Part shown: piece by piece, positions 36,701-40,223 of the stretch
How positions within the stretch are numbered: the first letter of the stretch is position 1
Layout of the letters: every line of letters begins with the position of its first letter
Origin: a virus
IMG/VR virus record: IMGVR_UViG_3300027896_000098
Coordinates: 1 to 40,223 of that record
Length of the DNA stretch: 40,223 nucleotides
Strand: one strand, 5' to 3'
Notes under the pieces: generated by a model
Seen by the model: the letters and a program-made list of their open reading frames with translations, nothing else
What the model was told of the DNA's origin: nothing
The model's database searches: none
Translations under genes and position numbers: made by a program

Positions 36701-36781
36701 ATGTATTTAATTCGGTTGGATTTTGTACAGAAAAATTCGGATCTAAAATTACTACTTATTAATTATGGAGGAAAAAAATTT

Positions 36782-38251
36782 ATGAAAGAACTATTAATGG
36801 AAGCTTACAAAGCAACCAAAAAAGTTTCTGGTATTGATCCCTCAAAACCTGGAAACTTGAAAGCGATTTTGCTAGACGACAATTCTTGGGAAACATATAG
36901 AGATAGTTTAGCGGAAGGGTTGGACAATAAAAAAGATAAAGAAATTTTTAAGATGTTATGTGAGAACACAAGAGTTAGTTTACTTGAAAACTCTATGTTC
37001 CAGATTAATCCGTACGAATCTTTAACGATGCCTATTCTAAGAGTCTTTTATCCAAAGTTTATAGCCAAAGAAGCAGTTACTGTTTCTCCAATGGATAAAC
37101 CAGAATCTGTGAAAGCGTTCATTAAAGCAACATTTACACCATCTAATAGCGTAACTGCTTACAACGCTCCTGTTCTTACCCCAGATATTTCTGGAGGTCC
37201 TGGAATAGGTACTTCTGTTACTGCTACTTTATCCGTTCCTCTACAGGATCATAATATTATTGTAGACGATATTCATCTAACACTTGGTCAGGCACATTTA
37301 GAAAGAGATTTCGAGATTACCGGAGTAAGTGATGGAACTTCATGGACTGATGTTTCTGTTGTTCCTGCTGTTGAAGGTCATTTTAGTTCTACAGTACCTG
37401 TTGGTCTTGTCGGTGGACATGGTGCTGGGAATGATGTTATTTCTGGATATATTGATTATTTAGCTGGAACTATTTCGATTTCTGCTGCAGCTTCTAAAGT
37501 TACAGAAATTCGTTATAAAGTTACCTGTTCTCTTGAAGAAAACCAGGTTAATCCAAAAGTTACAATGACTGTTGAAAAGATCAGACTGTATGCTAAAGAC
37601 AGACAGATCCAGTCAAATTGGACTATTAACATGGAACAGGATATGAGAGCATTATTTGATGTTTCTATGCAGGCGGAAATTGTTAACCTGTTAGGTCAGC
37701 AAATTGCTTTAGATATCGATAGAGAAATTGTTCAGGCTTTAGTTGTTGCAAATTCTCGTTTGAATGGTACTAGCCATCAGGGTTCATTCTTAAGAACTCC
37801 TCCAGATACTTATACCTGGGGAACTAAGTATTGGCATGAAAATATAATCCCTGTGTTGAATAAACTTTCAGCTCAGGTTTATACTGATACCAATATTGAT
37901 GCTGCGAATACAATTCTTGCTAACCCTCTTGATGTAGCTATTCTTGAGGACTTAAATGGATTTGCTTACACTGGAACTTCTACTAATAACGGTGATGTTG
38001 GTTATCGTACTGCTACAGTAGCTGGTGGAAAATGGAAGATATTAACAAGCGCAGTTGTGACACAGGGTAATATGACTCTTATCTACAATCCTTCCGATGA
38101 GATTAGAGCTATTTACTTCTACGCCCCATATGTGCCAAGTATCCTTCATCCATACCCACTAGGATACACTCCTAGTTTAACAATCTTATCAAGATATGCT
38201 ACAGCCTTGGTAAGATCAGGTGGTATTGCTGGATTGACTATTGGAGCTTAA
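36782..38251 (+). CDS. major capsid protein (T4 gp23-like), 489 aa
   Basis: The main shell protein. L-T-M-P-I-L-R-V-F-Y-P and V-S-P-M-D-K-P (about residues 82-110) and the C-terminal F-Y-A-P-Y-V-P ... R-Y-A-T-A-L-V-R-S-G-G match gp23-type HK97-fold capsids. The ATG at 36782 follows GGAGG; an ATG 27 codons upstream has no site. The gene is clearly richer in G+C and in preferred codons than its neighbours, as expected for the most expressed virion gene. GroES-like (24.1 kb) and the gp21-like protease probably act on it. Confidence 0.88.
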   Translation: MKELLMEAYKATKKVSGIDPSKPGNLKAILLDDNSWETYRDSLAEGLDNKKDKEIFKMLCENTRVSLLENSMFQINPYESLTMPILRVFYPKFIAKEAVTVSPMDKPESVKAFIKATFTPSNSVTAYNAPVLTPDISGGPGIGTSVTATLSVPLQDHNIIVDDIHLTLGQAHLERDFEITGVSDGTSWTDVSVVPAVEGHFSSTVPVGLVGGHGAGNDVISGYIDYLAGTISISAAASKVTEIRYKVTCSLEENQVNPKVTMTVEKIRLYAKDRQIQSNWTINMEQDMRALFDVSMQAEIVNLLGQQIALDIDREIVQALVVANSRLNGTSHQGSFLRTPPDTYTWGTKYWHENIIPVLNKLSAQVYTDTNIDAANTILANPLDVAILEDLNGFAYTGTSTNNGDVGYRTATVAGGKWKILTSAVVTQGNMTLIYNPSDEIRAIYFYAPYVPSILHPYPLGYTPSLTILSRYATALVRSGGIAGLTIGA

Positions 38252-38271
38252 TAGTTAACTAAATTTAAAAC

Positions 38272-38314
38272 AAAAAAAGACCTGGATTTGAGAAATCTTT
38301 CCAGGTCTTTTTTT
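38272..38314. terminator. bidirectional terminator between the capsid gene and array 1
   Basis: A perfect 14-bp stem AAAAAAAGACCTGG / CCAGGTCTTTTTTT ends the capsid transcript. It can equally end leftward transcripts that come through array 1. Confidence 0.92.
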
Positions 38315-38320
38315 ACGTTG

Positions 38321-38860
38321 AAAACACTATTCGATCATGGTTTTCTTTTTCAGTCTGGTTCACTGCAGCCGTATGGATTTCTTTCAGGGGGTGGTTCACT
38401 CACTTACGATGGGTTTCTCCTTCATCCTGGTTCACTAAATACTTTAGGATTTCTTTGACTTCTTGGTTCACTGCTACCTCTTGGGTTTCTTAACGCGCTT
38501 GGTTCACTTTTGATCCTTGGGTTACTTTGACTTCTCGGTTCACTTCACATACGTGGATTTCTTGGCTTTCGTGGTTCACTACCCTGGCATGGATTTCTTG
38601 TCCAGTTTGGTTCACTCATGTCTTCTGGTTTTCTGATCGACGATGGTTCACTAATTCTTAATGGGGTTCTTGTTCTCCATGGTTCACTTGAAGCAGTTGG
38701 GTTTCTTGTCTTCCATGATTCACTAATTATTTGCGGATTCCTTGTTCCTAATGGTTCACTTTTTTCAAATGGATTTCTTATTAAATATGGTTCACTTTTT
38801 CTGTTTGGGGTTCTAATGGTTTCTGGTTCACTTAATTATCATAGGTTTTCTATTTAATGA
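38321..38860. repeat. 36-bp periodic array 1 (15 units)
   Basis: Each unit is GGTTCACT, 10 variable bases, GGRTTTCT, 10 variable bases. Block A starts at 38357 and then every 36 bases exactly to 38825 (14 copies, 13 exact; GATTCACT at 38717), preceded in register by a decayed AAAACACT at 38321. Block B varies at its third and fourth bases. The 10-base spacers share no sequence apart from a T bias at the last position. Neither strand is open throughout, although 18 bp equals six codons. It lies between a terminator and the 3' end of the leftward gene at 38882. Confidence 0.95.
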
Positions 38861-38881
38861 TGGTTTGTTCCTCCTTTTATT

Positions 38882-39469
38882 TTACTGGTTAGTCCTTTTA
38901 TTTTTAAAAAATTCATTAGAAAATAATGGATTTCCTAAAGGTTTAAGGTTCATATACTTTTTTGAAAGTTTTTTCCTTTCAGATCTTCTTGCTGAACTTC
39001 TTTTTTTAGATACTATTTTTTCTGCATTAAATTGTTCTACTTTTCCAGAATCTATATCTTCCTGACATATACAATTATAATCAGAAAAATTTTCAACTCT
39101 TTTAATAATTTTTCTAGGTATTACTATTCTATGACTTTTACTTAGAAACATTATAAAAGAATTATAAGATTCAGAATCATTTTTTCTATACCAATCTAAG
39201 AAATTCTCGTATATTTTACGAGATGATTGATTCATACCTAAACCAGGAACTATGACATAAAATATGTCAATTTTCTTATCTGCATAATATACAATAAGAA
39301 TACATCTTTTAAATATTTCTTCGTTAACAAAATTAGGATTTATATCTTCCTTTTTAAAAATAGTTGTTGGTACGGAATAGGAAGTATAATCGTATTCCGG
39401 AAGATAATCAAAATGATCAATTCTAATATTTTGATAGTAATGATCATTCGCATAATTACGCGTAGACAT
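38882..39469 (-). CDS. hypothetical protein between the two arrays, 195 aa
   Basis: I do not recognise this protein. Residues about 30-110 are mixed alpha/beta (ILIVYYADKKIDIFYVIVPG in two strands). The C-terminal 60 residues are very basic (KKRSSARRSERKKLSKKY), as in nucleic-acid binders. AAAGGAG precedes the ATG and the junction motif at 39531-39548 lies 62 bases upstream. Its 3' end is about 20 bases from array 1, with no terminator between, so array 1 is probably its 3' UTR on the leftward transcript. It is the natural candidate partner of the arrays. Confidence 0.7.
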   Translation of the reverse strand: MSTRNYANDHYYQNIRIDHFDYLPEYDYTSYSVPTTIFKKEDINPNFVNEEIFKRCILIVYYADKKIDIFYVIVPGLGMNQSSRKIYENFLDWYRKNDSESYNSFIMFLSKSHRIVIPRKIIKRVENFSDYNCICQEDIDSGKVEQFNAEKIVSKKRSSARRSERKKLSKKYMNLKPLGNPLFSNEFFKNKRTNQ

Positions 39470-39530: not shown

Positions 39531-39548
39531 TAATTAATATATATAGTA
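39531..39548. promoter_or_regulatory. divergent-junction motif, copy 8
   Basis: TAATTAATATATATAGTA lies between the leftward 195-aa gene and array 2. At the other junctions a rightward gene follows; here the array takes that place. Confidence 0.6.
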
Positions 39549-39556
39549 AAACAAAC

Positions 39557-39596
39557 AAAAAAAGATATAAGTTAGTAATTCACTTATACCTTTTTT
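39557..39596 (-). terminator. terminator at the left edge of array 2
   Basis: AAAAAAAGATATAAGT pairs with ACTTATACCTTTTTT. The single A-C mismatch on the + strand becomes a G.U pair in the leftward RNA, which also ends in a U run. This favours termination of leftward transcripts coming out of array 2, though a weaker rightward hairpin also exists. Confidence 0.6.
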
Positions 39597-40223
39597 CACT
39601 ATCTTGACATGGGTTTCTTTTTCAGGACGGTTCACTAAACATGCATGGATTTCTTCACTAAAATGGTTCACTAATTGTTGATGGTTTTCTCTTTTACATC
39701 GGTTCACTTTTCCGGATTAGGTTTCTTAACTTTTCTGGTTCACTTTGCCACTCAGGAGTTCTTTTCGATTATGGTTCACTTAATATTATTGGGTTTCTTT
39801 TGAATTTTGGTTCACTACAATGTTATGGGTTTCTTTTATACGGTGGTTCACTCTTCTTCCTAGGGATTCTTCCTTTCGATGGTTCACTTTAATTCATTGG
39901 GTTTCTCGGAAACGGTGGTTCACTTCAATCAACTGGATTTCTCTCGATCCTTGGTTCACTATATTATTATGGGTTTCTTTTCGGTAAATGGTTCACTTTT
40001 CATCTTTGGGTTTCTTTTTACCAGTGGTTCACTGCATTTGGCTGGTTTTCTCCGTGATCCTGGTTCACTATATTTTCTTGGATTTCTTTTTAATATTGGT
40101 TCACTTTCTTCTGCTGGGTTTCTGTTTCGACATGGCTCACCTCACTCATTCGGGTTTCTTCCAAGTCAAGGTTCACTGGGTGGGGCTGGTTTTCTCGGAG
40201 ACAATGGTTCACTAAGAAGTCAT
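39593..40223. repeat. 36-bp periodic array 2 (at least 17 units, runs off the window)
   Basis: The same blocks and spacing as array 1. Block A lies at 39629 and every 36 bases to 39953, then, after one 11-base spacer, from 39990 every 36 bases to 40206. A decayed TTTTCACT at 39593 is in register. GGCTCACC at 40134 is the only other weak copy. The spacers differ from those in array 1 and from one another. The one-base slip would break any reading frame. The array continues beyond the right end. Confidence 0.95.

What the first reader, a model, noticed from the sequence alone, without database searches (positions are those of the whole stretch)
38321..38860. Array 1: alternating 8-bp blocks with hypervariable 10-bp spacers on an exact 36-bp period
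Fourteen GGTTCACT blocks lie exactly 36 bases apart, with GGRTTTCT blocks exactly midway, and the 10-base spacers look unrelated. The period is held to the base while the spacer sequence is free, so spacing and the blocks seem to be selected. CRISPR repeats, simple iterons and degenerate minisatellites do not have this two-block, fixed-length-spacer design. Possible roles: a lattice of protein sites (origin, partition or packaging), a repetitive RNA, or a store of 10-base sequences.
Basis: seen in the sequence. Interest (0 to 1): 0.9.

Follow-up and report, generated by a model that had tools for sequence, protein, structure and literature searches.

The report
TIGR guide-RNA arrays in a phage
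The repeat array is one of two TIGR arrays in a piece of phage genome: a recently described, CRISPR-like store of paired 9-base guides that becomes 36-nucleotide guide RNAs for a Tas protein, so it is a real but already known kind of system.

Summary
The array (38339-38858) and a sister array (39593 to the contig end, 40223) are dual-repeat TIGR arrays (Tandem Interspaced Guide RNA; Faure et al., Science 2025, PMC12045711), read on the minus strand. The unit is edge repeat AGTGAACCA, 9-nt spacer A, loop repeat AGAAAYCCA, 9-nt spacer B: 36 nt, the published length of a mature tigRNA.

Over 120 IMG/VR stretches carry the same architecture. One protein family lies within 300 bp of an array in 98 of 101 cases, always on the tigRNA-sense strand. 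Its profile matches solved TasH (8e-57) and TasR (6e-37), and the predicted structure of a member matches the same structures best. Edge repeats show the published compensatory pair changes. Both window arrays end in a truncated edge repeat plus a U-tract hairpin, as published. Four of 24 records with a related capsid gene (apparently two phages) carry tas and arrays just past that gene, the window's position.

Oddities: no tas gene is on this 40-kb contig, which breaks off inside array 2. An orphan gene (ORF195) sits where tas usually lies; tas is probably in the missing part. No spacer target was found. Verdict: new member of a known kind.

The parts
38339..38858 (-). TIGR array 1: about 14 units of edge repeat AGTGAACCA, 9-nt spacer A, loop repeat AGAAAYCCA, 9-nt spacer B
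   Evidence: sequence and unit table; chance test; homologous arrays
38321..38328 (-). 3' truncated edge repeat of array 1 (sense AGTGTTTT)
   Evidence: read from sequence; the paper describes 3' truncated edge repeats
38268..38316 (-). terminator-like hairpin with U tract that closes array 1; symmetric, so it may also serve the capsid gene
   Evidence: fold of 38255-38356, z -3.98
39593..40223 (-). TIGR array 2, cut by the contig end; about 17 edge repeats, one 37-nt unit
39557..39596 (-). terminator-like hairpin with U tract right after the truncated last edge repeat of array 2
   Evidence: fold of 39545-39612, z -5.11
38882..39469 (-). ORF195, orphan gene between the two arrays, in the place that tas usually takes; not a recognisable Tas
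   Evidence: no family or relative; not in the tas cluster; model pLDDT 37
36701..38251 (+). major capsid protein gene, the anchor for comparison with relatives
   Evidence: PHROG 20655 E 2e-40; 24 relatives

Best explanation
The feature is a dual-repeat TIGR array, one of two in this phage fragment. By homology with the published system, the minus strand is transcribed and a host RNase, with the Tas protein, cuts the transcript inside the edge repeats into 36-nt tigRNAs. Each tigRNA is held by a Tas (Nop-domain) dimer through its edge and loop repeats, and pairs spacer A with one strand and spacer B with the other strand of an adjacent ~18-bp DNA target. The closest relatives' Tas looks like a nuclease-less TasA, so the likely outcome is RNA-guided binding that bends or blocks the DNA of rival mobile elements or the host, rather than cutting. 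Shown here: array anatomy, strand, terminators, recurrence, linkage to Tas in relatives. Inferred from the published system: transcription, processing, guiding. Not shown: a tas gene for this phage, any target, the biological purpose.
For: 36-nt unit with two 9-nt spacers and two repeats, both ending in CCA, loop repeat A-rich, as in the paper. The edge-repeat pair covaries: 110 CG and 37 TA arrays against 5 mixed, also within arrays, as published. Tas-family gene within 300 bp and on the sense strand in 98 of 101 members. Family profile hits TasH 8e-57, TasR 6e-37, IS621 7e-7; AF2 model matches TasH and TasR structures first. Both window arrays end in a truncated edge repeat plus U-tract hairpin. 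Capsid relatives L181-183 and L196 carry tas and AGTGAACC arrays 1.2-1.8 kb past the capsid gene on the opposite strand.
Against: No tas gene is found in the window. ORF195 is not a Tas. Box D reads AG rather than the UG of TasR arrays, though the paper says boxes vary between loci. No target was found for any spacer pair. No expression data.
Confidence: 0.94

Rival explanations
1. These are TIGR arrays that have lost their tas gene or now serve another effector: ORF195 has taken the place of tas, and the arrays are relics or feed a new machine.
For: ORF195 sits between two arrays, 25 bp from array 1, as tas does in other loci. No tas in the 40 kb. 12 of 39 well-flanked array loci lack a nearby tas.
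Against: The contig breaks off inside array 2, and capsid relatives lie on contigs of up to 312 kb, so much of the genome is probably missing. One 277-kb contig has both a tas and a distant tas-less array. The repeats are intact and regular. ORF195 has no Nop-like motif and no relative next to any other array.
Confidence: 0.1
2. A lattice of protein-binding sites on double-stranded DNA (replication origin, partition centromere or packaging site).
For: Regular spacing and conserved blocks. The paper notes a ParB-like gene next to some tasA genes.
Against: Covarying pairs within the edge repeat fit RNA, not double-stranded DNA. Fixed strand relative to a Tas gene. Terminators close the arrays. 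Copies occur at several places in one contig.
Confidence: 0.02
3. Degenerate remains of a gene coding a hexapeptide-repeat protein (SEPxxxRNPxxx on the minus strand, GSLxxxGFLxxx on the plus strand).
For: 18-bp half-period; variable block positions fall on third codon positions.
Against: Stops occur in spacers about as often as with shuffled spacers, and units of 35 or 37 nt occur in related arrays.
Confidence: 0.01

Closest known systems
TIGR-Tas, dual-repeat arrays (Faure et al. 2025, PMC12045711)
   Same: Edge and loop repeats of 8-12 nt, 9-nt spacers, 36-nt unit, CCA box C, covarying edge pair, A-rich loop repeat, truncated edge plus terminator at the 3' end, found in tailed phages and CPR bacteria; Tas genes next to the arrays in relatives.
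   Different: No tas gene on this contig; box D is AG; an unrelated small gene (ORF195) lies between the arrays.
CRISPR arrays
   Same: Repeat-spacer array that stores guide sequences.
   Different: Two alternating short repeats, 9-nt spacers, 36-nt unit holding two spacers; the gene beside the arrays in relatives is tas.
IS110-family bridge RNA and box C/D snoRNA
   Same: RNA with two guide segments bound by a Nop-type domain; the Tas family profile also hits IS621 and ISCro4, and the model weakly matches archaeal Nop5.
   Different: Tandem array of many guides; the Tas family scores far closer to TasH and TasR than to the transposases.

Membership tests
TIGR-Tas (dual-repeat) | Two distinct alternating 8-12-nt repeats with about 9-nt spacers | tested here: met
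   Unit table of both arrays
TIGR-Tas (dual-repeat) | 36-nt repeating unit, the size of a mature tigRNA | tested here: met
   Period 36 throughout array 1; one 37-nt unit in array 2
TIGR-Tas (dual-repeat) | Repeats end in box C (CCA) and begin with box D, shared by edge and loop repeats | tested here: met
   CCA at the end of nearly all repeats; AG at the start of nearly all edge and loop repeats; the paper has UG for TasR but says the boxes vary together
TIGR-Tas (dual-repeat) | Extra base pair in the edge repeat, supported by covariation | tested here: met
   Across the family 110 CG, 37 TA, 5 CA arrays; the window itself has only the TA form
[quoted passage not shown]
   Both arrays: sequence and folds with z -3.98 and -5.11; the simple terminator scan did not list them
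TIGR-Tas (dual-repeat) | A Tas (Nop-domain) gene encoded next to the array | tested here: inconclusive
   None in the window, but the contig is cut inside array 2; present in relatives at the same position
TIGR-Tas (dual-repeat) | Array transcribed and processed to 36-nt tigRNAs bound by Tas; spacers target both DNA strands | not testable with these tools
   No RNA data; target search showed no signal above controls
CRISPR | One repeat type of 25-36 nt separated by variable spacers of similar size | tested here: not met
   Two short repeats and 9-nt spacers
Protein-coding repeat gene | An open frame across the repeats | tested here: not met
   Stops in all six frames of array 1, about as many as with shuffled spacers

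The most novel reading that the evidence does not exclude
ORF195, which lies between two intact TIGR arrays where tas usually sits, is a new kind of TIGR effector or tigRNA cofactor unrelated to the Nop-domain Tas proteins, so that the arrays of this phage feed a different machine.
Probability: 0.05. Interest if true: 0.75.

Novelty: new member of a known kind. Interest (0 to 1): 0.3.

Why it matters
It places a TIGR locus as optional cargo beside the capsid gene of a group of large phages, and gives sets of related arrays in which gain and loss of guide units can be read. How TIGR arrays change and what they target are open questions in the TIGR paper. It also shows that arrays without a nearby tas are common, one of them on a contig with a distant tas, so searches that start from tas would miss part of the family.

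Tried and rejected
Literature search with the octamer alone gave only unrelated sequence matches. Rfam: nothing above threshold. BLASTN of two related arrays against 50,697 phage records: no match. Hits in Lachnospiraceae, Streptococcus azizii, a Clostridia MAG and a Bacillota MAG (L052, L053, L054, L056) look like repeats of another kind and were dropped. Coding origin: rejected. Target search with spacer A followed by the reverse complement of spacer B (a geometry I derived from the published 8-nt 3' overhangs): 26 sites with one mismatch against 22, 20 and 14-17 in controls, none exact; one spacer pair conserved in several phages had no exact target in IMG/VR. ORF195: no relatives and an unusable model. 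A contig overlapping the end of array 2: none found.

Full report
Observation. The 36-bp array is real and far above chance: 29 exact GGTTCACT in the window with 24 pairs spaced 36, against at most 3 copies and no pair in 200 shuffles. Array 1 spans 38339-38858. A second array of the same design and orientation spans 39593-40223 and is cut by the contig end. The 10-base spacers are nearly random apart from the base before GG (mostly T) and the base after CT (mostly Y), so the variable part is 9 nt in TIGR terms. Stops occur in all six frames of array 1, about as many as with shuffled spacers.

Recurrence. It also occurs on contigs of a Spirochaetales MAG and a Yanofskybacteria (CPR) MAG. Over 155 arrays the consensus is TGRYTCRYTY N8 TGGNTTNCTY N8 (three of those were later dropped as unrelated coding repeats). 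Positions 3 and 6 of the first block change together, C with G and T with A: 110 and 37 arrays against 5 mixed. In ten arrays that hold both forms, 166 units are matched and 32 are not.

The partner gene. Clustering all ORFs of the loci gave one dominant family (about 285 aa, 100 loci). Of its 101 members 98 lie within 300 bp of an array, always on the strand opposite to GGTTCACT, which makes the minus strand of the window the sense strand. Many members match Transposase_20, a domain of IS110-family transposases. The family profile hits PDB entries of TasH (8e-57), TasR (9mty, 6e-37) and IS621 (7e-7). The AF2 model of the Tas protein of a capsid relative (L009, pLDDT 80) finds TasH and TasR first, then IS621, ISCro4 and archaeal Nop5.

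Comparison with the paper. [quoted passage not shown] 9-nt spacers; 36-nt tigRNAs; CCA as box C; an extra covarying pair in the edge repeat; an A-rich loop repeat; and arrays that end in a truncated edge repeat and a terminator. Each of these points that sequence can test is met here: edge AGTGAACCA, loop AGAAAYCCA, truncated edge plus U-tract hairpin at both 3' ends (z -4.0 and -5.1). Box D reads AG instead of UG; the paper states that the boxes can diverge between loci but covary between edge and loop.

The window's own locus. Twenty-four relatives of the capsid protein (59-76% identity) sit on contigs of 27-312 kb, so the 40-kb window is probably a fragment. Four of these records (L181-183, apparently one phage in three assemblies, and L196) have tas and arrays with the same edge repeat 1.2-1.8 kb past the capsid gene on the opposite strand; no array or tas was seen in the other twenty, and those examined have other genes there, mostly on the minus strand. 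The window has the arrays but no tas. Between its arrays lies ORF195, with no detectable relative. Of 39 array loci with at least 2.5 kb on both sides, 12 have no tas in reach. Some contigs of such arrays have a tas elsewhere: one of 277 kb has a tas at 218 kb and a separate array near 75 kb. A remote or off-contig tas is therefore the simplest reading.

Mechanism. Inferred from the published work: the transcript is cut into 36-nt tigRNAs that guide a Tas dimer to DNA, one spacer per strand. The relatives' Tas shows no nuclease domain (TasA-like); the paper leaves the function of TasA open. I judge interference with rival elements or control of host DNA by binding the likeliest use (about 0.4), and could not test it.

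Array evolution. In related phages whole units are shared with both spacers together and mostly in the same order, with private units between them (L011, L013, L024). This suggests internal gain and loss rather than growth at one end; it is a lead, not a result.

Verdict. A new member of a known kind. The interest left lies in the missing tas, in ORF195 and in array evolution.

Noticed in passing
L011, L013, L024, L037 (array stretches): Related phages share whole TIGR units (both spacers together), mostly in the same order, with private units in between: internal gain and loss rather than growth at one end.
   Followed up: partly
L037 7462-8426 and L182 10659-13361 (same 277-kb contig): One phage contig has a tas-linked array and a second array about 140 kb away with no tas beside it, so tas may serve remote arrays.
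   Followed up: partly
L018 6117-7073, L047 2576-3517, L148 3838-4779: These Tas proteins have an N-terminal extension that reads like an HNH nuclease (TasH type) by eye; Pfam did not confirm it.
   Followed up: partly
L017 9679-10356, L062 6487-7179: A second protein family (about 227 aa, 10 loci) sits next to arrays on the tas strand in 7 cases; Pfam gives only weak HTH or ParB-like hints. It may be the ParB-like partner named in the TIGR paper.
   Followed up: partly
L059, L060 (arrays): In these arrays the loop-repeat position also carries GGCTCGCT or GGTTCACT, so edge and loop repeats are nearly alike.
   Followed up: no
window 38860-38884: A strong ribosome-binding-site-like sequence (AAAGGAGGAAC on the minus strand) lies between the end of ORF195 and array 1 with no gene after it.
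   Followed up: no
window 38472, 38544: The same spacer A (AGAAGTCAA) occurs in two units of array 1 with different spacer B.
   Followed up: no
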